Shown here in pieces: positions 7,323 to 22,900 of a stretch of 64,000 bases of DNA. The notes under the pieces are model-generated. The model saw nothing but the letters and a program-made list of their open reading frames with translations. It was not told where the DNA came from and did no database searches. The translations under genes were made by a program, and so were the position numbers. Position 1 is the stretch's first letter; every line of letters begins with the position of its first letter. This stretch comes from Batrachochytrium dendrobatidis JAM81 (Eukaryota; Chytridiomycota; Chytridiomycetes; Rhizophydiales): positions 1,228,690-1,292,689 of the forward strand of contig NW_006281099.1 in the NCBI RefSeq assembly GCF_000203795.2, written 5' to 3'.

Positions 7323-10300
7323 ATGCAACCAATTATTGCTGTTACTCGGGAGCCAGCCAAGGACATGGCAGATGCTAATGTTTCTACATCAAGGCCTTCT
7401 ATTGGAAAGTCTTCCATCGAACACAAGGGTTTCTTTCGATCTTTTGTTAACCAGATGCAAATCATGATGCGACGTAATACTATCTTGCAGGTATATATTC
7501 ATCAAGCAAAAACTGCATGACAGTGCATGTGCTACTTTGTCTTTGTATATGTTTGAATTCATCTGGACTGTTGATGGTTGCTATTGTTGTGATGAGAAGG
7601 GTGCTAGCAAAATCATCACTGGTAAACACCATTTCTCGGCCGTAAATGGCATACATTAAATCTGTATTGACACTATCAAATCCGATGATATGGGATGTCT
7701 TTAAATTTGATGGGTGCTTCAATAGATAAACTCTAGCAATGGTAGACTACAGCATTCAATGAATTACTAATACTTGCGTACTGAACTTGATTGGAATTTA
7801 GATTCGATATCTCAACTCAACCATTGCTCAAGCTTTACTAGCACCCTTTATTTTCCAGCTTCTCTTGTTTGTCCTGCAGCAGGCGGATTATGCTAATCAG
7901 CTAGTGTCCAACCCCCACCCCCCTCTTGGTGCTTTGCAGGGTGTTCCTCGGTGTCAGGTATGCTTGCTAACAACTCTGCTTCATTCCCATTGTATGTGGT
8001 TACACAGGCTACGTGTATTGTGCCTACTGTTCAGCCATCATTTTCAATTTAAGCGTGACAGCCATTGATTTATACTTTGTTATTTGATTGTCTTTTAATT
8101 GTACAATGAATGTGATTTATCATAGGGGCGTGACCCTGGATCACCGTGTGTGAGCATCATGTATACACCTGATACAACTGTAAATGGAGTCAATTACACA
8201 AAAATTATGGAAACTTTTGCCAAACTTAACCAGCCACGATCTGGATATCAGTTTCGATTTGAAGCTCCTATGACTGACTATACTATTGTGCCCACTCAAG
8301 TTTACGATATGGTTCCAGTACCAAATGCCGATTTTATCTACAACTACGCCTTGAAGCATCCCAACGCAACTTCATGGGGTCTCACTTTTAATCAGCCTGC
8401 TGCAACTACTCCCATAAATATCCAGTATCAGCTATGGTTTAATGCCACCAATTCAGCAAATGGCAGTGACATTTTTGGTCGCAACGTGCTTGCATTTGTT
8501 CGTGGTTTAGACGAAGCCATCATTACGGTTTTGAATGATCCCACCGCGACGATCACCACAAACATTGATGTGAACATCAAAGACTGGCCACTGATTCCTG
8601 CTGGCCAGCTTTCCGACTCCATTGTTCAATCATTAGGCCCTGTGTTTTTCTTTTGCGCAGAAATGATCATCTTTATCAATGTTTTGAATCAAATTGTTTC
8701 TGAAAAGGAACTCAAGCTTCGTCACAGCATGGAGGTTATGGGACTTCGACCTTCTGTATATTGGCTCAGCCATCTGATATCCAACTCTGTGCTGGTATTT
8801 ATCAATGCTCTGTTTACCGGACTGTTTGGCTTAGCATTTGGCTTCCAGGCGTTTAGGAATACCAATTTTGGTGTAGGTTCATCTGTACTTGAAAATATTG
8901 ATGCCAAGTTTGAAAGATGACTTTATGTGCACTTGTGGTATACTAACCAAGTTTTTCTGGCAATTCAAGGTTATTCTCATTACGTTTTTTCTTTTTGGAG
9001 AGGCTATGGTTATGATGGCATTCTTTATCACAACTCTTGTTCGAAAAACACGCGTTGCCATTTTGATTGGCATCTTTATTTTTGTGATTGGACTGCTATT
9101 CGAGTCGTTTGTCTTTTCGTCAGGATACCTTGGATACATTTGGTGGTCGTCAAGCACTGTTGATCCTGCTGGGTGGAAATGTCTTATGTTCATTCCCTTT
9201 TTCAACTTTGGCCATATGTTTCTTGATATTGCCACACTTACCACGGGCATGCTTGATACGCTTACCAACACCTACATTCCTGGCCCTGGATTTCCATGGG
9301 CTACACTATACACTAGTGTGCCTAGAGACTCATTGCCTACATACGGAGATGGCCTCCCTCCTGTCGTTCCGCAAACGATTCAGGCTTGGTATTTGATGAT
9401 TATGGATTGCTTTTTTTACGGTATTTTGCTTTGGTACTTTGATAACGTGATTCCCAACGAGTTTGGTGCCTGTCAAGTTCCATGGTTCTTTTTGACGCTA
9501 GACTATTGGGGGATCGAGACCGCTTCAAAAAAAAGCATCAACAGAGCCGATTGGCAAGCCAAAAATACATCAGTGTACAGTCTTATTCCTCCAGAAGGAG
9601 ATGAGGATTCAGATGTTCTTGCTGCTCGAGATCGTGTTTTGGATCCTAGTCACTTTCCCGAATTGAAAATTGTCAATTTGCGCAAGGTTTATCGAAACAA
9701 TATTCTGTTTTCTTCAGAAAAAGACAAGGTTGCCGTTCGCAATTCATGTTTTGGTGTTGAAGAAGGGAAGTTATTGGCCTTGCTTGGTCAAAACGGGGCT
9801 GGAAAATCAACAACCATCTCCATGCTTTCGGGCTTGACTCCTGCCACATCGGGTGATGCCTTAATCTATAATTTTTCTGTCCGAAACCAAATCCATCGTA
9901 TTCGCTCTATTATGGGCATCTGTCCACAACACGACGTTCTCTTTGATGACTTGACAGCCCGTGAGCACATTCATTTGTATGCCGGTCTCAAGGGCGTTCC
10001 ATATAATGAGATTGCGTTGCTCATTGAGGAACGTTTACAGGCTGTGCGCCTTCTTACTGTTGCCGATGTGCGTGCTGGGACTTATTCTGGCGGCATGAAA
10101 CGACGCCTTTCACTTGTGATTTCAACGATTGGCGACCCCAAGGTGATTTTCATGGACGAACCAACTACTGGTATGGATCCAGTAAATCGTCGTCATGTGT
10201 GGACATTTATTGAAAAATTCAAAAAAGGACGTGTGATTATTCTCACAACGCACTCGATGGAGGAAGCTGATGTTCTCGGTGACAAAATTGCCATCATGTC

Positions 10301-10631
10301 CAAAGGCCGTTTGCGTGCCATCAATAACTCGATTGCTCTCAAAACCAAATTTGGCACTGGATATCGTATTTCTGTTGTAGCAAATCCGGTTGAATTGGAG
10401 CATGTCAAAGGAATCATTCAGCGTATGGTTCCTGGTGCTGTCCTTGAAGATGATTCCGCCGGTGCTCTCATTTACCAATTCCCTGGATCGTCTACTGGTT
10501 CGATTCCTGATTTTGTACAGTGGCTTGAGGAAAACAAAGATGGTCTTGTCAAATCTTGGGGAATCAGCCAATCTACACTTGAAGAAGTGTTTTTGAAGCT
10601 GATTCGTGAAACCAACGAAAAGTTTCGCTGA
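7323..10631 (+). CDS. ABCA-type half ABC transporter (TMD-NBD), copy 2
   Basis: This is the second subfamily-A half transporter. Exons 7323-7490, 7802-7957, 8126-8872 and 8970-10631 give 910 aa with phase 0 at every junction. A 21-nt extra exon at 8008-8028 (phase-compatible, weak donor) is possible and would add seven residues. The order is a cytosolic N-terminus with QMQIMMRRN, a first helix (exon 2), a large loop, about six membrane helices (about 8630-9460), then one nucleotide-binding domain. That domain has Walker A GQNGAGKST, signature YSGGMKRR and Walker B VIFMDEPTTGMDP, and the C-terminus has STLEEVFLKLI. It is clearly related to the 2837-6457 gene but not a recent copy. The substrate is unknown; lipid handling is inferred from the subfamily only. 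Confidence 0.88.
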
Positions 10632-10738: not shown

Positions 10739-10850
10739 CAGTCGTATTTACGTAAAATGTGACGCTAAACAAGGATACCAAAATACATAATAAACCGTCA
10801 GTCTCATGAAATGGTTGGCGTTGATTTGTTGCACAGCATTGCGTCCACTC
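10739..10850. mobile_element. Left end of TIR element, crossing the palindrome edge
   Basis: CAGTCGTATTTACGTAAAATG at 10739 is the terminal inverted repeat. It is followed by the family's subterminal sequence (CGCTAAACAAGG, then ACATAATAAACCGTCAG) and an internal GCACAGCATTG. The first 24 bases are outside the large inverted repeat and the rest is inside it. The right end of the copy is not recognisable. Confidence 0.65.
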
Positions 10851-11114
10851 GACCACTTACAGCTAGCGACAAATGATATGAAAATGGATATGCAAAATAA
10901 ATATAAAACTGTCAGTATTCATCACCATCAGTGTGTATCATATATTTCGAGTTTGCTTGGTGTCGGCTTGCTCATACAGTCGCATCGGTACAACGTGAGC
11001 AAGCTGATAGTGATCCGAACTCTATTTCAACAAAAAGCCGACAGTCGTGTATTTGCTGCATCCAATCAATTACACACCGTTGCTGACTGTTGAGTGTGTA
11101 TGCAAGCCAAGTTG

Positions 11115-12237
11115 TCACCAACCACATCCAGTGCGTACACGACCATTCCTAGAATGACTGTCCAAAATACTCGCGTTCAAAAGTTGACCGTGAGTTGATG
11201 GTTTGCAAGAACCGGACACAACCAACATGCTATTCGAGACAGCAACCTGATTATAGTTCAAACATATGGTGTGATACAGTGGTTCGTGCATCACAACACC
11301 CAGGTATTTGTAGTGTTGAACACGACGAACCTGTTGTCCGTGTAGCATCACATCAACTGGTAATTTGGAATCAAAGTGTTGTAACCACGGAAACCGAGTA
11401 TGTCGCATTTGACTACACCAAAGTTTGACATTGTTCCATTCATTGTGCAAGTACACCAGATACAAACTGGAGTGACCGATCAGAATCGACAAATATTGCG
11501 ACATTGTTGGCATACATGAATCCTCATACTGGTGGTGATTTGCGCGACACTCATGCAATGACAATCGGTTGATACCATCGGATATGTCGTTGATGAACAT
11601 GCTGAACACGTTGAACAACAACCTGGCAGTGGACATCATTTTCGAACTTCACATTCAATTGGAAATGGACCGGAAACCTGTGATCCAGTCTGAGCATGAG
11701 CTGATGAGCATGTGTACAACACTTTTAGCAAACCACATGCTCTGCAGTTACCATGACAATGCACCAACCATGACAGTGTCGAATGCATTCCGAATGTCAA
11801 TCAACACAATAGTATTGAGCTACACGCACAGCCGTCGTTAATAATATCGACTAGTGGAGCAATCTGCGCAACATACTCTTATTTGGTTTGAAATCGACCT
11901 TGTTCAGTGGTGACGAGTTTGTTGAGATCCACGACAATCAATGTGTGTTTGCAAGACCTTGCAAGCCAACGAGATCCGCATCAACCAGCGTAATACCGTA
12001 CTTGCCATTAATACCAATGTGATCAATGTGATCACCGTCATTTTTGTTGATACATGCAATCAGTACAATCGATACAATGTATGCAGACTGCCAGCAGGTG
12101 GGATAGTGACTATCAGATATTGCTTGAACTGCGTAGCAGAACATGAGCAAATTTTGACATTGTTTTAATTCTTGTGTACTGCATTCTGGTTTGGGTCTAA
12201 ATGCCGACAACTCAAACATTCGATAACCACACTTCAA
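11115..12237 (-). pseudogene. Degraded non-LTR retrotransposon reverse transcriptase (left arm)
   Basis: Broken reading frames on the minus strand carry fragments typical of LINE-type reverse transcriptases: PTCWQSAYIVSI at the start of the domain, then EQGRFQT, and a late YKYLGV block. Several in-frame stops and frame changes interrupt it. Compared with the mirrored copy in the right arm it also has a net 5-nt loss near 11425-11450, which destroys the frame around the active-site region. No intact element, endonuclease or poly(A) tail is visible. I infer a long-dead insertion that was duplicated with the palindrome. Confidence 0.65.
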
Positions 12238-13586
12238 ATCTGGACAATAGCATGGATGTCTTCATGACACTGCAAGCCAACCCCAACACATCAGTCATGA
12301 CGTTGAGTACTCCAGCCATATCACAATAGTGTAGTCGAATATGAACCAACTACTATGCATTTACCGCACGTTTTGGCTGGCTTGATTTTGCATTTACAAA
12401 CTCTACTGATCCAGTCACTCATATTTACCAACCAAATCCTGTGTAGTCGATAGTCGGGATTCTGTTGATTAAAGCTGGTTTCAGTGGCGTCTTGTATGAC
12501 TGATACAATACCAATGCAGTGTTGTCTGCTTGATATAATATGATAGATAACGGTATATTTATTACTAATGTTTTGAGTTGATGTGGCAAATATTGCTTTA
12601 TGATGGCCGCATTATTATCAGTAATCCTCGTATATGGTTTGTACTGGCCATCACTACCAAAAAGCATCAATCACGTACTAGTTGTGACAATGCAGCTCGA
12701 TACGGTCCATTATTGTAAATATGTTTAGACTACTAAACACATCTATTGTTGTAGTCATCCGAGTAAACCCAGAGTATTCTTTCAAAAACAGCGCATCACC
12801 AACCAGTTACTCGACATGTTTGAGTAGATATTGGTGTTGTAGTTTGGACCGCATTCAAACTCATGTATTTCGTTTAGACCAAAATTTAATCACACAAAGA
12901 TCTAATCTGCCAATGGTTCATGTGTGGTAGATACTGATATAGTTGATTGAGCTGATATTTTATATCTGATTGAGTAGTTTGAAATATAACACCAGACGCA
13001 AGTTTAGTAATATCACCGAGATGGCATCACAAGTGATCTAGCAGTATTATCCTACACTCCAGCAATTATATTATACTTGCATTGCTGACATTCGAACTTG
13101 CAATACAATTTGTCTAGAGCAATACTCCAATCGCTATTGAGTTGTGTTGACCAAACTAAGCAAGAGTCCACAACTAACCTGATTCCAGCATGCTTTTACA
13201 ACATATTACCACGTTTATACGGATCAGGGTTATGATTGTAGTCAAGCTTTGTTGGTCAAGCAAAATGGAGATTTGAGTAATGAACATTTGGCATTCTAAT
13301 ACCCTGACTACTAGAATTAAAAGCAATCTTTAAAACCTGCATTGCTTTGTTTTACAGTGTATACTATGACGATTGAGTTGTTCTGTAATTGTGCTTGAAT
13401 ACACCTACCGAACAATGTTCAAAAGCATGTGTGCTTTATATAATCTTGAAACGGTGGCTAAATATGATTTACTCGGTCCCATACTGGTTTAGTGGGGCTA
13501 CCATTTACTGAGTACCCTTGACCACATACAAAGCTTTATGGCTATCCAAATATGATTTTTCAGATTGTTTCAGGTCAAATCTGCAA

Positions 13587-13593
13587 TATAAAA
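13587..13593 (+). promoter_or_regulatory. TATA box of secreted peptide gene A
   Basis: TATAAAA lies about 90 bp before the ATG at 13683. A short repetitive leader of CCAATC/CAATCTA units (about 13637-13672) separates them. The same box and leader are conserved in the other arm. Confidence 0.6.
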
Positions 13594-13682
13594 GCCAGGT
13601 TTTATCCAACTCTTGGACTCATCAAACATTGTCTATTCCAATCCAATCTAGTTCAATCCAATCCAATCTATATCAACCAACT

Positions 13683-13841
13683 ATGAAATTCACTGTCATC
13701 GCACTCATCACAGCATTAGTGGTATCTGTCACTGCCACTCCTCTTGGTTCGGGCAACCTGATAAATTTTTGCGATACTGACGAGGAGTGTTCCAAAGGCC
13801 GGAAATGCCAATCTTACGGTAACTTTGGAGTCTGCGATTAA
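13683..13841 (+). CDS. Small secreted four-cysteine peptide A
   Basis: A 52-aa protein. The first 18 or so residues form a signal peptide (MKFTVIALIT, then a hydrophobic core ending SVTA), so the mature chain is about 34 aa. Cysteines are at positions 30, 36, 42 and 51 (C-x5-C-x5-C-x8-C), which would allow two disulfides. The segment QSYGNFG before the last cysteine is shared with peptide B. The reading frame is open upstream to 13518, but a TATA box at 13587 and the signal peptide argue for the ATG at 13683. AATAAA follows at about 13934. I do not recognise the family. A secreted effector, an antimicrobial or a signalling peptide are all possible and none is shown. It differs from the mirror gene at 10 of 52 residues although the flanking DNA is nearly identical. 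Confidence 0.75.
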   Translation: MKFTVIALITALVVSVTATPLGSGNLINFCDTDEECSKGRKCQSYGNFGVCD

Positions 13842-14162
13842 TGCCTAAAAGTCTTGGCTATATGCGTGTCAGCATCTGCTCTGGAGCCTGTTCAAGTCGC
13901 ACCGACTAGTTTAAACTTGTAAATTTTGAAATGAATAAATCTCACTTTACAATGATATTTGGTTGATACTGTATATCGTGACTTTGTATACGTTTGATCA
14001 CAAACTGTTGTGTTCCGAGTCGAGTATGACCTCGTTGTATAACAACGGTTCAACCTGTCGAGTCTGATTATTAGCGTATAAAGTATGGATATACTAATAT
14101 GCTAATATATGCAAGTTTAAAAACAACCACATACTGCAATGTCTATCTGTACTGATGTCCCA

Positions 14163-14466
14163 GATTACAATCAACACACTCTGTTTGTAAATAGTCAAAC
14201 CAAGTAATTACTAAAATGATTTCATTTTGAAACAGATACAGGTTTAATAATAGATTTTGATCATACAACTGTTCTATAATTGTTTGTCATTTTTAAGACG
14301 CAATAGTCCAAAATAAGCTTTACATTTTGATATTCACAGTTTCCGAATATTTGCAAACAAAACTTATTGCAAGATCAGCAAGTGTCAATACAATACAACC
14401 TTGACTAATCATTTGTATTCATGAGTGACAGACTGGTAAAAAACCAATCAGTTATTGGCTGCAATT
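14163..14466. other. Spacer at the centre of the inverted repeat
   Basis: About 304 bp, AT-rich, lie between the two arms. Sequence identity between the arms stops abruptly after GATGTCCCA on the left and its complement on the right. No gene or terminal repeat was seen in it. The unique spacer would form the loop of a hairpin. Confidence 0.7.
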
Positions 14467-14780
14467 TGGGACATCAGTACAGATAGACATTGCAGTATGT
14501 GGTTGTTTTTAAACTTGCATATATTAGCATATTAGTATATCCATACTTTATACGCTAATAATCAGACTCGACAGGTTGAACCGTTGTTATACAACGAGGT
14601 CATACTCGACTCGGAACACAACAGTTTGTGATCAAACGTATACAAAGTCACGATATACAGTATCAACCAAATATCATTGTAAAGTGAGATTTATTCATTT
14701 CAAAATTTACAAGTTTAAACTAGTCGGTGCGACTTGAACAGGCTCCAGAGCAGATGCTGACACGCATATAGTCAAGACTT

Positions 14781-14945
14781 TTAGGCATAATCGCATAATC
14801 CAAAGTTACCGTAAGATTGGCATTTCTGGCCTTTGGGACACTCCTCGTCACTTCTGCAAAAATCTATCATGTTGCCCGAATCAAAAGGAGTGGCAGTGAC
14901 AGATACGACGAATGCTGTGATGAGTGCGATGACAGTGAATTTCAT
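14781..14945 (-). CDS. Small secreted four-cysteine peptide B
   Basis: A 54-aa mirror partner of peptide A with the same signal peptide start (MKFTVIALIT) and the same cysteine positions (30, 36, 42, 51). The differences are L12F, L21F, G22D, L26M, N28D, D31R, T32S, S37P, R40Q and V50L. A 1-nt change at the end removes the first stop and adds two residues (YA). By my count about 14 nucleotide changes are amino-acid changing and one is silent. Only about one change is seen on each side, within 20 bp of the coding region. Expression signals match copy A, with TATAAAA at 15041-15035. Function unknown. Confidence 0.75.
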   Translation of the reverse strand: MKFTVIALITAFVVSVTATPFDSGNMIDFCRSDEECPKGQKCQSYGNFGLCDYA

Positions 14946-15034
14946 AATTGGTTGATATAGATTGGATTGGATTGAACTAGATTGGATTGGAATAGACAAT
15001 GTTTGATGAGTCCAAGAGTTGGATAAAACCTGGC

Positions 15035-15041
15035 TTTTATA
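15035..15041 (-). promoter_or_regulatory. TATA box of secreted peptide gene B
   Basis: This is the mirror of the TATAAAA at 13587-13593, about 90 bp before the ATG at 14945, with the same CCAATC-rich leader between them. Confidence 0.6.
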
Positions 15042-16390
15042 TTGCAGATTTGACCTGAAACAATCTGAAAAATCATATTTGGATAGCCATAAAGCTTTGT
15101 ATGTGGTCAAGGGTACTCAGTAAATGGTAGCCCCACTAAACCAGTATGGGACCGAGTAAATCATATTTAGCCACCGTTTCAAGATTATATAAAGCACACA
15201 TGCTTTTGAACATTGTTCGGTAGGTGTATTCAAGCACAATTACAGAACAACTCAATCGTCATAGTATACACTGTAAAACAAAGCAATGCAGGTTTTAAAG
15301 ATTGCTTTTAATTCTAGTAGTCAGGGTATTAGAATGCCAAATGTTCATTACTCAAATCTCCATTTTGCTTGACCAACAAAGCTTGACTACAATCATAACC
15401 CTGATCCGTATAAACGTGGTAATATGTTGTAAAAGCATGCTGGAATCAGGTTAGTTGTGGACTCTTGCTTAGTTTGGTCAACACAACTCAATAGCGATTG
15501 GAGTATTGCTCTAGACAAATTGTATTGCAAGTTCGAATGTCAGCAATGCAAGTATAATATAATTGCTGGAGTGTAGGATAATACTGCTAGATCACTTGTG
15601 ATGCCATCTCGGTGATATTACTAAACTTGCGTCTGGTGTTATATTTCAAACTACTCAATCAGATATAAAATATCAGCTCAATCAACTATATCAGTATCTA
15701 CCACACATGAACCATTGGCAGATTAGATCTTTGTGTGATTAAATTTTGGTCTAAACGAAATACATGAGTTTGAATGCGGTCCAAACTACAACACCAATAT
15801 CTACTCAAACATGTCGAGTAACTGGTTGGTGATGCGCTGTTTTTGAAAGAATACTCTGGGTTTACTCGGATGACTACAACAATAGATGTGTTTAGTAGTC
15901 TAAACATATTTACAATAATGGACCGTATCGAGCTGCATTGTCACAACTAGTACGTGATTGATGCTTTTTGGTAGTGATGGCCAGTACAAACCATATACGA
16001 GGATTACTGATAATAATGCGGCCATCATAAAGCAATATTTGCCACATCAACTCAAAACATTAGTAATAAATATACCGTTATCTATCATATTATATCAAGC
16101 AGACAACACTGCATTGGTATTGTATCAGTCATACAAGACGCCACTGAAACCAGCTTTAATCAACAGAATCCCGACTATCGACTACACAGGATTTGGTTGG
16201 TAAATATGAGTGACTGGATCAGTAGAGTTTGTAAATGCAAAATCAAGCCAGCCAAAACGTGCGGTAAATGCATAGTAGTTGGTTCATATTCGACTACACT
16301 ATTGTGATATGGCTGGAGTACTCAACGTCATGACTGATGTGTTGGGGTTGGCTTGCAGTGTCATGAAGACATCCATGCTATTGTCCAGAT

Positions 16391-17518
16391 TTGAAGTGTG
16401 GTTATCGAATGTTTGAGTTGTCGGCATTTAGACCCAAACCAGAATGCAGTACACAAGAATTAAAACAATGTCAAAATTTGCTCATGTTCTGCTACGCAGT
16501 TCAAGCAATATCTGATAGTCACTATCCCACCTGCTGGCAGTCTGCATACATTGTATCGATTGTACTGATTGCATGTATCAACAAAAATGACGGTGATCAC
16601 ATTGATCACATTGGTATTAATGGCAAGTACGGTATTACGCTGGTTGATGCGGATCTCGTTGGCTTGCAAGGTCTTGCAAACACACATTGATTGTCGTGGA
16701 TCTCAACAAACTCGTCACCACTGAACAAGGTCGATTTCAAACCAAATAAGAGTATGTTGCGCAGATTGCTCCACTAGTCGATATTATTAACGACGGCTGT
16801 GCGTGTAGCTCAATACTATTGTGTTGATTGACATTCGGAATGCATTCGACACTGTCATGGTTGGTGCATTGTCATGGTAACTGCAGAGCATGTGGTTTGC
16901 TAAAAGTGTTGTACACATGCTCATCAGCTCATGCTCAGACTGGATCACAGGTTTCCGGTCCATTTCCAATTGAATGTGAAGTTCGAAAATGATGTCCACT
17001 GCCAGGTTGTTGTTCAACGTGTTCAGCATGTTCATCAACGACATATCCGATGGTATCAACCGATTGTCATTGCATGAGTGTCGCGCAAATCACCACCAGT
17101 ATGAGGATTCATGTATGCCAACAATGTCGCAATATTTGTCGATTCTGATCAGTCACTCCAGTTTGTATCTGATGTACTTCGCACAATGAATGGAACAATG
17201 TCAAACAAGTTTTGTTGTAGTCAAATGCGACATACTCGGTTTCCGTGGTTACAACACTTTGATTCCAAATTACCAGTTGATGTGATGCTACACGGACAAC
17301 AGGTTCGTCGTGTTCAACACTACAAATACCTGGGTGTTGTGATGCACGAACCACTGTATCACACCATATGTTTGAACTATAATCAGGTTGCTGTCTCGAA
17401 TAGCATGTTGGTTGTGTCCGGTTCTTGCAAACCATCAACTCACGGTCAACTTTTGAACGCGAGTATTTTGGACAGTCATTCTAGGAATGGTCGTGTACGC
17501 ACTGGATGTGGTTGGTGA
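16391..17518 (+). pseudogene. Degraded non-LTR retrotransposon reverse transcriptase (right arm)
   Basis: This is the mirror of the 11115-12237 remnant and the better-kept copy. In order it shows YPTCWQSAYIVSI, TTEQGRFQTK followed by a stop, DIRNAF-like residues in another frame, YANNVAIFVDSDQSLQFVSD, and YKYLGVVMHEPL. The catalytic YxDD box reads YANN, so the domain would be inactive even if the frame were open. Stops and frameshifts are present. Family assignment is by motif order only. Confidence 0.68.
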
Positions 17519-17870
17519 CAACTTGGCTTGCATACACACTCAACAGTCAGCAACGGTGTGTAATTGATTGGATGCAGCAAATACACGACTGTCGGCTTCT
17601 TGTTGAAATAGAGTTCGAATCACTATCAGCTTGCTCACGTTGTACCGATGCGACTGTATGAGCAAGCCGACACCAAGCAAACTCGAAATATATGATACAC
17701 ACTGATGGTGATGAATACTGACAGTTTTATATTTATTTTGCATATCCATTTTCATATCATTTGTCGCTAGCTGTAAGTGGTCGAGTGGACGCAATGCTGT
17801 GCAACAAATCAACGCCAACCATTTCATGAGACTGACGGTTTATTATGTATTTTGGTATCCTTGTTTAGCG

Positions 17871-19299
17871 CTAATAGTAAACAGCAGAGGCATGGTAAAG
17901 CAAATTGATATGGCGACGCATAGGATCAATACTGACATAGCAAAAGTTTTGAGGATGCTCCAGAGGAAACAGCTGAGATACTGAGGATTTGACCTGAGTG
18001 ATTTTGTAAATAAACGAAGCAACTTTAAGTTTGTTTGTCAATGGATCCTTGACCACCCTAAGCAAAGAAAGTAATAATATCAGTCAAGACATAATCAAGC
18101 CTGATATACAATATCTGAAATTCAATTTACGTGATTAGATCCTTGTAAAGTTTTTTTGTAACTTGCAAATATGGCTCAAGATCATTTTCGTACTGACACA
18201 GGCGACCACCAAGACACATTGCTTGAAATACATGGAAAATAAACTCGCGCCTGTCATCAGGCGAAAACAGGTCATATAGGTCAAACTCGGGCATCAACAG
18301 ACATTTACGGAGATTATCGGCAACCAAAAACGAGTCGTGGTATTCATCCATACACTTTGTAATTTGTCCATTCGATCTGACAATTCCTAATCATAAATTC
18401 AATTCAAATTCGGCTGTTAGACATCAACAGCCTACTTTTATATCTGATGATAACAAACTGATTGAAATACAAATTCAGTTAATTTGAAAACTACGTACCA
18501 TTGGTCAGAAGACGATCAAAGAAATCAAGAGATGTGATGGTATGGTTTGTTTCCTCCTTGGACACGTTGGTTACATTTCCAAGCGTTCCCCAACGGTCCA
18601 TTGTTCCTTGAACCTTGATTTGTGGATTAGCATTGAAGAAATCGAGAAGAAACATATCAATGTCGTATGGTTTGAGATACTGGTCGTATGTAAAGCGTTT
18701 GATGTAGCAATGGTCCTGCATGCCCCTATATCAATGGCATTTAATGGAATATTGACATACGTTGGTGACAAGTGTCATGCATACAGTATAGCATTGGGTT
18801 CCAAGAACACATCAGTGGATAGTCAGATTTACAATGGGCACATTCGGCAAATAAAATACCCTTGGATATTCTGCATATACACAGCATATAGCAAATTCTT
18901 CATTTAGCATCTAGATACGTACCATTTGAAAAGACAAGCTTGAGTTTCCTTGTCATCAAACCCAGGGAACTTGGCATCCTTCAAATAGGTAAAGCTAAAC
19001 TTTTTGCGGTCAGAAGCAGCAGTAGGCACACCAACATCTGTTTTGATAGATACATGGCTAGGAATCTCTGTAATAAGCGGCGGTGAATGCAATTCATCTT
19101 TTTTTAGTTCAGCATTCTCTGCGGCTATAGCTGCGACTACCATGGTGCTATCTGGTTGGACTTGATTGGATGAGATAATGGCAACGTTTGGAATAGAGCT
19201 GCTATTGGAGTTTGGCCCAGTTTTTTGTGAATGGTTGCTCTTTACAATATCTTTATCATTAGATATATCATAATCGTCTGGTAGTTCAATAATCATCAA
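17871..19299 (-). CDS. CFAP300: CFAP300 (C11orf70) homologue, axonemal dynein assembly/transport factor
   Basis: In animals and algae CFAP300 is a cytoplasmic and ciliary factor needed for outer and inner dynein arms. Four exons, 19299-18923, 18725-18499, 18386-18131 and 18057-17871, have GT-AG introns and agreeing phases and give 348 aa (human about 267). The extra length is a low-complexity N-terminus of about 95 residues. Conserved blocks are DMFLLDFFNANPQ, DEYHDSFLVADNLRK, DDRREFIFHVFQAMCLGG, LCQYENDLEPYL and, at the end, DPMRRHINLLYH. The stop codon abuts the palindrome edge, so the whole 3' UTR is palindrome and element sequence; an AATAAA lies there about 30 nt on. The C-terminus looks complete. 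The gene implies a flagellated cell stage. Confidence 0.9.
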
Positions 19300-19911: not shown

Positions 19912-22900
19912 ATGAACAGTCCACTATGGGTTAATAACAGTCAACGGGTAATAATCTAGATGCATACTGTCTCCAAACTTTTTAATATGCATAGCCTTAT
20001 TTATACAGTGCTACTAAGCAGCTATAAATGTCTGGTGCTGACTAAAGATTAAATGTATAATTTTTAAAACCTTGGCAATATGCTTTAGAGCAATACTTTA
20101 AAATACTAATTGATTGCTGCATTCATTCATCTTTCAAATTAAATTAATATATCAAGGTAACCCTCGATGCGACTGTCAAGGATTACAGAAAGCGATTTGA
20201 TCCGGAAAATGTATTCAATGTGCCAACAACAGTAGATACTTTGGTTGATATTCCTCTCTATGAAGCAATGCAAAAAATGCAATCAGCCAAAAAAGAGCTT
20301 GCTATGATTCAATCAGAGTGGGCTTTGCAAGAAGTAGCACATCGAGCACGAACTCCACACCATATGGGAATAGGAATAGTTTCTGATAATGCAATAGTAG
20401 GTCAAGAGGATGGCATGACATCAATTAAAAGCTCCATCATGCAAGAGTATAACAACATTCACCACGAAAATGATGCAGATAGTGGCTTGAGCCCGCTTCA
20501 TATTGCTGCACGAAACAACAATGTAGCAGACATCAAACTGTGGATCCAATCGTTTTCAAAAAACACATTAAACATACATGATTTTACCCCCTTGATGGTT
20601 GCAGCATCGCATAATTCGCTCCGAGCATTAAAGGTATTGCTGCGAATGGGCGTAAGAAAAAATGACGTGGATTCGGTTATGCAAAGAACGGCTCTGCATT
20701 GGGCAGTGATTCATGAGCATCATCAAGTTGCCAAAGCATTGCTGAGGTTTGGTGCTGATGCTCGCTTTCGCGATCGCGATGGACGTACTCCAGTCCATCT
20801 TGCCGCCATGCAGCCAAGTCCAAAATGTCTTCAAGTCATGCTTAAATTAGTTAAACCAGCAGCATTTCTTGAGGGTGATAATGAGCAAATGACGCCAATC
20901 CATCTGGCTGTAATGAATGATAATGTCAGGCAACTTGGTATGATTCTGGCTGCGCATTCGCCAATTGACTTGACTGCAAGTGATGTAGAGGGGAAAACGG
21001 CATTGCATTGGTGTGCTCAAAACGACGTTCCACAAATTTACTCCCCAACAATCTTTCACAAGCCCACCACATGTATAAAACTTTTGATTGACAACAATCC
21101 ACAGTTGGTTAAAATCAGTGATCTGGAAGGAAGAACGCCATTGCACCTAGCATGCACTGTTTCCAACATGTCACTGATTTTTGCCATATTTAATCAGTTA
21201 CTGGGAACATACGCACTAAAAGATCTTGTAAATGCACAGGATGTATTGGGTCGGACAGCAATACACTATTCTGCAATTGGTGGACATGCGTATATTCTCC
21301 GTGTATTGCAGCACTACGGCGGAAATGATGGTATAGCAGACAAGGACGGAGCAACACCCTTACATTATGCCTGTGTTAAAAATCATGGACAGTGTGTATC
21401 CGTATTGATAAGCGATAATCGACTTTATGAAAACTACATTCGTGACTCTCAAGGTAGAACGCCAATCATGTGGGCGGTTCTTAAAGGCTATGCAGAAGCC
21501 CTTCGAATTTTGCTAGAAGCAGGTGTTGATCCAAACGAAGAAGACGACAAAAAAACAACGGGTGAGATTGTTCACGATATACTTGTGTCTTAGTATCGCC
21601 ATATTGCAGATTTGCTGAAAATCGTCTACTAAATCAATTTTAATATCGACACCAAATTTATGATAATATCCAGCACTACATATCTGTGCGTTGGGAGGTC
21701 ATTCACATTGTGCATCACTTCTTCTTGAGCACGGCGCATCGGTTGATATGCAGAATAGTGAAAATCGATCGCCTCTTTTTCTAGCCACCCAACACAATCA
21801 TGGTCAAACTGCCAACATTTTAATTCAAAACGGAGCCAATGTGAATCTGCTTGATATGGATCGTCAAAGTCCATTACATTGGGCTGCACTCTATGGACAT
21901 CTGAGTATTGTCAGTCTATTGCTATCCTGTCAAGCTGAAATAGACATAGTGGATAAAGAGGGGAAAACACCATTTCATTGTGCAGCGTAGGTCTTGAAAT
22001 AATGTCGATTGTCGGAAAAACTTGGATACTAAAACAATTCCAATGTAACCTAAATTGTATGAATAGATATAATGGCCACACCAAGGTTCTTGGATTCCTA
22101 GCAAAAAATGGCGCGGCTTTGGAACACAAGGATAACGAAGGTGTTTCAGCACTTCATTGGGCAACATGTGGAAACTATTTTGATTGCGTAAGAATGCTAC
22201 TTCAACTAAACGTCAACCCTAATATTATGGACAGCGATTTGCTCACCCCACTCGACTACGCCATTTCTGTGCGAAGTATAGAATGCACTGAAATTCTAAA
22301 TGAATATGGTGGTCTGACAGGCGATATTATTAGCGACGTGTATGCCATACGAATCCAGCGTGCTTGGAAAAAATACATGAAAAATAAGCATAAAAAAAGT
22401 GATGCTACCTACAATGAGCCTTCAGTGTTAGGAAACACGGATGGAAGGTATGGGTCGTATTCAAAGCTGGCGCTTGGAAATCGATACATGTCCATGGAGT
22501 CAATACGAAAAGGATCGTGCGACCAAGTACCATTTGAACGACGACGGCAATCACTAGTGACTGGAAGGCGAATATCAAGAGACTTGGGCATGGTAAATCG
22601 TGAGTACGCTGGCGCAAGTATTGATCCTTTAGGCGGGGAACCAGAATCTGCAGCAGCATACAAAAGCTCAAAGTGGTTCAAGTCCAAAATAGGGTTTCCA
22701 TCTCGGCCCACACCCATCAAAGCAGTCGTAAGTCGATCACGCGGAGCACTCAACACTCAAACCTCTTGTCAAAAAGATATCATTTCCGAGTCTGGTGAAA
22801 AACTAGGCAAGGAAAGCATAGATATTGAAACAATGACAGAGGTAAAAGGCTCTGAAAAAACAATGATTCCAGCCACATCAATGAGTTCTTTTGAAATGGA

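What the first reader, a model, noticed from the sequence alone, without database searches (positions are those of the whole stretch)
13683..14945. Secreted peptide pair diverged inside an otherwise near-identical palindrome
Peptide genes A and B sit at mirrored positions. For hundreds of bases on both sides the arms are identical by eye, including TATA box, leader and 3' flank. The 159-165 bp coding regions nevertheless differ at about 15 positions plus one indel. I count about 14 amino-acid-changing substitutions against one silent; the cysteines and the QSYGNFG motif are kept. Arms kept alike by gene conversion, with the coding region escaping under diversifying selection or receiving a tract from another paralogue, would explain it. 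This looks like a small device for making variants of a secreted peptide, possibly a host- or microbe-facing effector.
Basis: partly seen in the sequence, partly recalled or inferred. Interest (0 to 1): 0.87.

Follow-up and report, generated by a model that had tools for sequence, protein, structure and literature searches.

The report
Hypervariable secreted peptides inside homogenised palindromes
In the frog-killing chytrid fungus, a family of tiny, probably secreted peptides keeps nearly everything around each gene alike between copies while the part predicted to leave the cell usually differs.

Summary
Window 10763-17870 is a palindrome (3.4 kb arms, ~280 bp spacer); 15 of 28 arm differences fall in the 159 bp peptide gene, and the 2,203 bp just upstream has none. 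It is not a one-off: this Batrachochytrium dendrobatidis genome has 18 open members, and five convergent pairs on two contigs share the layout. Across the 17 aligned members the mature part keeps C-x5-C-x5-C-x8-10-C but has 14 distinct sequences, while leader, TATA box, poly(A) signal and flanks are largely shared. In 5 of 5 chosen pairs silent sites of the mature part are far more diverged than the flanks, and in the C1 group flank and mature trees reject each other. Selection on new point mutations alone cannot give this: flanks were homogenised around mature segments with separate histories. In recent pairs replacements exceed silent changes (pooled dN/dS 4.5, p=0.005; 3.3, p=0.012 with two more pairs), but A/B alone is not significant (p=0.33). 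Best reading: gene conversion plus selection for differing secreted peptides. Expression and target are unknown.

The parts
10763..14174 (+). Left arm of the palindrome
   Evidence: Inverted repeats I1-I3, 99% complementary; alignment of arms
14455..17870 (-). Right arm of the palindrome
14175..14454 (.). Spacer between the arms; 98-99% identical to the spacers of the two C1b pairs
   Evidence: spacer matches of 98.2% and 98.6%
13683..13841 (+). Peptide gene A, 52 aa: leader (about residues 1-19, by eye) and mature part with four cysteines
   Evidence: Open frame; family alignment
14781..14945 (-). Peptide gene B, 54 aa
13740..13838 (+). Mature-peptide segment of A, the divergence island (starts at codon 20)
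   Evidence: Divergence profile; pairwise counts
13587..13593 (+). TATAAAA box of A, 96 bp before the ATG
   Evidence: 17 of 17 aligned members have TATAAAA 83-129 bp before the ATG; position read
15035..15041 (-). TATAAAA box of B
13934..13939 (+). AATAAA poly(A)-like signal of A
   Evidence: 17 of 17 aligned members have it 81-92 bp after the stop
14690..14695 (-). AATAAA poly(A)-like signal of B
12463..13060 (+). Far-flank block, 95-100% identical in 7 of 8 matches in the genome (the eighth is 63 bp at 90%); all 8 at family loci
   Evidence: profile
15568..16165 (-). Mirror copy of the far-flank block in the right arm
10939..12152 (.). Dispersed repeat fragment at the outer end of the left arm (LINE-like by eye; no Pfam match)
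   Evidence: 33 matches at 75-82% identity outside window and family blocks, 40 of 75 candidates scored
16476..17694 (.). Mirror copy of the dispersed repeat fragment in the right arm

Best explanation
This is one locus of a multigene family of secreted (predicted by eye), four-cysteine mini-peptides of B. dendrobatidis. SHOWN: ten of the 17 aligned genes sit as five convergent, inverted pairs around a spacer; within each group of loci the leader, 3' flank and much of the 5' flank are nearly identical between copies, while the mature segment mostly is not; in the C1 group flanks and mature parts have different genealogies. INFERRED: recombination between inverted arms and between loci (gene conversion) keeps overwriting the surroundings; conversions that would also overwrite the mature segment are mostly lost because carrying different peptides is favoured, so copies keep old, separate mature segments and add mostly amino-acid-changing mutations. 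INFERRED further: the diverged mature DNA helps by stopping conversion tracts at its edges. INFERRED and untested: the peptides are exported, disulfide-bonded and face a varied partner, most likely amphibian skin or its microbes.
For: 15 of 28 arm differences in the 159 bp CDS, none in the adjoining 2,203 bp. Island with the same limits in three groups of loci. Mature silent sites far more diverged than noncoding flanks in 5 of 5 chosen pairs, p from 5e-12 to 1.3e-6 (the pairs share genes, counts rounded). AU tests in the C1 group: p=2.4e-4 and 1.5e-3. In the four C1b genes 28 of 28 informative flank and leader sites group 1+4 and 2+3, while 7 of 9 mature sites group 1+2 and 3+4. Pooled dN/dS 4.5 in recent pairs, p=0.005. 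5 of 5 convergent pairs carry two different peptides. 18 of 18 frames open; four cysteines at set spacing in 17 of 17.
Against: A/B alone shows no significant replacement excess (p=0.33). Across the C1 group pN and pS of the mature part are equal, 0.40 and 0.39. In the C21 group flanks and mature part agree on one tree (22 of 23 and 31 of 31 sites). Mature parts are sometimes shared: C1c1=C1c2, C21a1=C21b2, C3b=C3c, and C1c1/C1c2 show the reverse pattern (mature 0 of 111, upstream 82 of 394 different). Upstream divergence has bumps of its own. The toy simulation has the favoured rule built in. No expression, secretion or population data were seen.
Confidence: 0.65

Rival explanations
1. Recent duplication of the arms followed by strong positive selection on point mutations in the mature part, with no conversion.
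For: Replacement excess in pooled recent pairs; A/B differ almost only in the CDS.
Against: Silent sites of the mature part are also far more diverged than flanks in 5 of 5 chosen pairs; flank and mature trees conflict in the C1 group.
Confidence: 0.12
2. Cassette shuffling: mature segments are moved or swapped between loci, into flanks that were alike already.
For: Swap-like site pattern in C1b; the same mature part at different loci (C21a1=C21b2, C3b=C3c, C1c1=C1c2).
Against: For A/B no donor is held in this genome (nearest 63%). No conflict in C21. It predicts much the same data as flank conversion, so the two are hard to tell apart.
Confidence: 0.13
3. A local hypermutation process targets the mature segment.
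For: Silent and replacement sites are both raised, with sharp edges.
Against: A mutation process alone would leave one tree for flanks and mature part. The C21a1 mature part is identical at two loci and in public B. dendrobatidis record P0002, so it is not generally unstable.
Confidence: 0.07
4. Assembly artefact: collapsed haplotypes or consensus correction made the arms look identical.
For: One assembly was examined and no reads were available; near-identical arms are prone to such errors.
Against: The gene-spacer-gene layout recurs at two more C1 sites and two C21 sites with their own sequence, and the island has similar limits where flanks are only about 92-97% alike.
Confidence: 0.03

Closest known systems
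Conotoxin gene superfamilies of cone snails (PMC3862624, passages)
   Same: Conserved leader and noncoding (intron) sequence, highly diverse cysteine-rich mature peptide.
   Different: Different phylum and sequences; no introns seen inside these short frames; here the genes lie in inverted pairs with homogenised flanks. Works alike, not a member.
HYP effectors of potato cyst nematodes (PMC11228951, abstract and passages)
   Same: A hypervariable segment between near-constant coding ends in a parasite's secreted protein.
   Different: HYP variation is allelic at single loci and made by reordering motifs; here several loci, substitutions and small indels, no repeated motifs seen in the alignment.
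WAP domain, Pfam PF00095
   Same: B reaches the curated cut-off by 0.1 bit (20.9 against 20.8) over residues 23-42.
   Different: 1 of 15 members only; half the profile matched (10-29 of 41); four cysteines, where WAP domains have eight (recalled).
Palindromic gene pairs kept alike by conversion, as on the human Y chromosome (recalled, no call)
   Same: Inverted near-identical arms around a short spacer.
   Different: There the genes are homogenised too; here the mature coding segment escapes.

Membership tests
WAP domain (PF00095) | Profile score at or above Pfam's cut-off (20.8 bits) | tested here: inconclusive
   Met by 1 of 15 members (B, 20.9 bits); not met by the other 14.
WAP domain (PF00095) | Eight cysteines in a four-disulfide core (recalled) | tested here: not met
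   Four cysteines in 17 of 17 mature parts.
Conotoxin-like mode of evolution (analogy, not membership) | Conserved leader and noncoding DNA with hypervariable mature peptide | tested here: met
   exceptions with shared mature parts.
Conotoxin superfamilies | Sequence homology | tested here: not met
   Protein search found only four B. dendrobatidis records at E up to 1.
HYP-type locus | Variation made by reordering short repeated motifs | tested here: not met
   Substitutions and 1-3 residue indels, no repeated motifs by eye.
Secreted effector or toxin | Expression, export and action on another organism | not testable with these tools
   Leader judged by eye only; no signal-peptide predictor, RNA or protein data on hand.

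The most novel reading that the evidence does not exclude
The convergent palindromes are a diversification device: inverted arms keep copying promoter, leader and tail onto each other while mature-peptide segments are kept apart and traded between loci, so an animal-infecting fungus keeps and renews a repertoire of at least 14 different secreted peptides under shared control regions.
Probability: 0.25. Interest if true: 0.88.

Novelty: new variant of a known kind. Interest (0 to 1): 0.72.

Why it matters
Candidate virulence genes discussed for the amphibian chytrid in the passages read are large families such as M36, CRN, CBM18 and aspartyl proteases (PMC12204190). Peptides of about 55 residues are easily missed by annotation: two searches of a 5.8-billion-protein set gave only four related records, all B. 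dendrobatidis. If true, the pattern points to what the fungus needs to vary, and makes testable whether conversion in palindromes can preserve diversity in one segment while erasing it around.

Tried and rejected
Pfam on 15 distinct members: one marginal pass, B to WAP by 0.1 bit; every other match listed was below its cut-off. Rfam on the whole window: no match at gathering score.

Rejected: purifying selection on the flanks as the only cause of their likeness. In 8 of 8 between-group pairs the near flank (0-500 bp upstream) is 13-40% diverged, while the far flank (600-1100 bp) is 0-11%, the reverse of what promoter constraint alone would give.

P0001 looked at first like an A/B mosaic. It is more simply a B-like allele: it differs from B at residues 21, 22 and 26, where it has A's states, two of which (21, 22) are shared by three of four C1b genes.

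Literature: ten searches; nothing describing this family or arrangement was seen in the listings or passages. The isolate was not settled: 23.49 Mb in 33 contigs fits neither JEL423 version given in PMC11797018.

Rows dropped: the 18th member (contig C31) was left out of pairwise and flank work because its place did not appear in the DNA searches. One search used the 8 C1-group genes. The profiles used 7, 4 and 4 genes (C1c2 and C3c left out). A1 holds 15 distinct proteins of 18 genes; proteins identical to one already in, or differing only in the leader, were left out. A line that used 17 of 27 events was a miscount and is not used. The pairs for the silent-site and dN/dS tests were chosen by me, not at random, and some share a gene.

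Full report
WHAT IS THERE. The palindrome is real and longer than stated: arms 10763-14174 and 14455-17870 around a spacer of about 280 bp. Aligned base by base, the arms show 28 difference events, 15 of them inside the 159 bp of gene A (binomial p=2e-13). The 2,203 bp from 11478 to 13680 and the 305 bp from 13858 to 14162 show none. The CDS differences are 14 substitutions and one 1-bp indel that moves the stop codon and gives B two more residues.

WHOSE GENOME. The window lies in a 23.49 Mb, 33-contig assembly. Two family proteins are identical to public Batrachochytrium dendrobatidis records (C21a1 to P0002, the C31 member to P0004), and A is 87% identical to a third, P0001. The species is therefore taken as B. 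dendrobatidis; the isolate is not known.

THE FAMILY. A protein search finds 18 places in the genome, none with a stop inside; the frames are 52-58 residues. Seventeen were aligned with their flanks. All 17 have four cysteines spaced C-x5-C-x5-C-x8-10-C, TATAAAA 83-129 bp before the start and AATAAA 81-92 bp after the stop, and there are 14 distinct mature sequences among them. Ten genes form five convergent pairs (the window; two at C1 3.72 Mb; two on C21), two form a divergent pair (C1 3.56 Mb) and five were found singly (C3 three times, C12, C23). In 5 of 5 convergent pairs the two peptides differ; in the divergent pair the mature parts are identical.

THE ISLAND. In each of three groups of loci (7, 4 and 4 genes) divergence is low in most of the leader, jumps near its end, stays at 0.15-0.44 per site through the mature part and falls at the stop codon. 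The upstream side is not flat: it reaches 0.14 in the C1 group, 0.28 near -190 in the C21 group and 0.22 beyond -440 in the C3/C12/C23 group. Examples: C1b1/C1b4 have 1 substitution in 385 upstream bases (30 gap bases), 0 in the leader, 28 of 111 in the mature part, then 191 identical bases. C21a1/C21a2 have 29 of 368 upstream, 0 in the leader, 35 of 111 in the mature part, then 372 identical bases. C3a/C12 have 4 of 400 upstream, 1 of 57 in the leader, 38 of 108 in the mature part, 13 of 399 after it.

WHY POINT MUTATION AND SELECTION ALONE FAIL. In 5 of 5 pairs that I chose, silent sites of the mature part are far more diverged than noncoding DNA beside the gene, p from 5e-12 to 1.3e-6 (counts rounded, pairs share genes; for C21a1/C21a2 only the 3' flank was compared, as its upstream differs more). 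In the C1 group (8 genes) the flank tree and the mature tree reject each other (AU p=2.4e-4 and 1.5e-3). In the four C1b genes 28 of 28 informative flank and leader sites group 1 with 4 and 2 with 3, while 7 of 9 mature sites group 1 with 2 and 3 with 4. So flanks and mature parts have different histories there. In the C21 group they agree (22 of 23 and 31 of 31 sites), so no swap is shown there, though leader and 3' flank have no informative site left.

SELECTION. Over three recent pairs (A/B, C1b3/C1b4, C21a2/C21b1) there are 33.8 replacement and 2.2 silent changes in the mature part, dN/dS 4.5, p=0.005; with C3b/C23 and C3b/C3c added it is 3.3, p=0.012. I chose these by high mature identity. 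A/B alone gives p=0.33 over the whole CDS. Over all C1-group pairs pN and pS of the mature part are 0.40 and 0.39, against 0.07 and 0.10 in the leader. The case for selection is moderate; the case for different histories is strong.

A WIDER GRADIENT. A block at 12463-13060, more than 600 bp upstream, is 95-100% identical in 7 of 8 matches in the genome (the eighth is 63 bp at 90%), and all 8 lie at family loci on C1, C21 and C3, although the flank next to the gene is 13-40% diverged between these groups. Likeness thus falls towards the gene, as expected if exchange is free far away and hindered near it. Since the rule was built in, this shows consistency, not proof.

MECHANISM. Best reading: gene conversion, within inverted pairs and between loci, homogenises control regions, leader, tail and spacer; copies keep different mature peptides because difference is favoured; replacement mutations then add to it. 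The sharp edges in A/B suggest that diverged mature DNA also stops conversion tracts (inference). Export, disulfide bonds and any host- or microbe-facing role are inferred from sequence.

KNOWN RELATIVES. The pattern works like conotoxin families, where leader and introns are conserved and mature peptides vary (PMC3862624, passages), and resembles nematode HYP effectors in having a variable segment between constant parts, without their motif shuffling (PMC11228951, abstract and passages). Of 15 distinct members scanned against Pfam, one (B) reaches the WAP cut-off by 0.1 bit over half the profile; no other match reached its cut-off. With four cysteines instead of eight (recalled) it is not filed as WAP. 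Passages of four B. dendrobatidis genome papers (PMC9926174, PMC11797018, PMC12204190, PMC3744429) did not show this family; PMC3744429 reports raised omega in uncharacterised secreted genes. Ten literature searches showed no description of it.

VERDICT. New variant of a known kind.

Noticed in passing
P0003 (public record O5D80_005494): A B. dendrobatidis protein that reads by eye as a patchwork of three C21-type peptides of this genome, a hint of exchange inside the mature part between isolates.
   Followed up: no
10939-12152 and 16476-17694: A dispersed repeat, LINE-like by eye, lies in both arms but is not part of the homology to the C1b pairs, which begins at 12163; so this palindrome reached outward over a repeat.
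   Followed up: partly
12425-12667 (-) and mirror 15961-16203 (+): An 80-residue open frame in the far-flank block, 96-98% identical in the two C1b copies but broken up in the C21 and C3a copies; no Pfam match.
   Followed up: partly
8159-10631 (+): ABCA-type transporter gene in two overlapping frames directly left of the palindrome.
   Followed up: no
18127-18721 (-) and 20268-21593 (+): CFAP300-like flagellar gene pieces and an ankyrin-repeat gene to the right of the palindrome.
   Followed up: no
G000:C1:3715796-3726124: Two convergent pairs lie as inverted copies of each other (3.9 kb at 96%), a palindrome of palindromes.
   Followed up: partly
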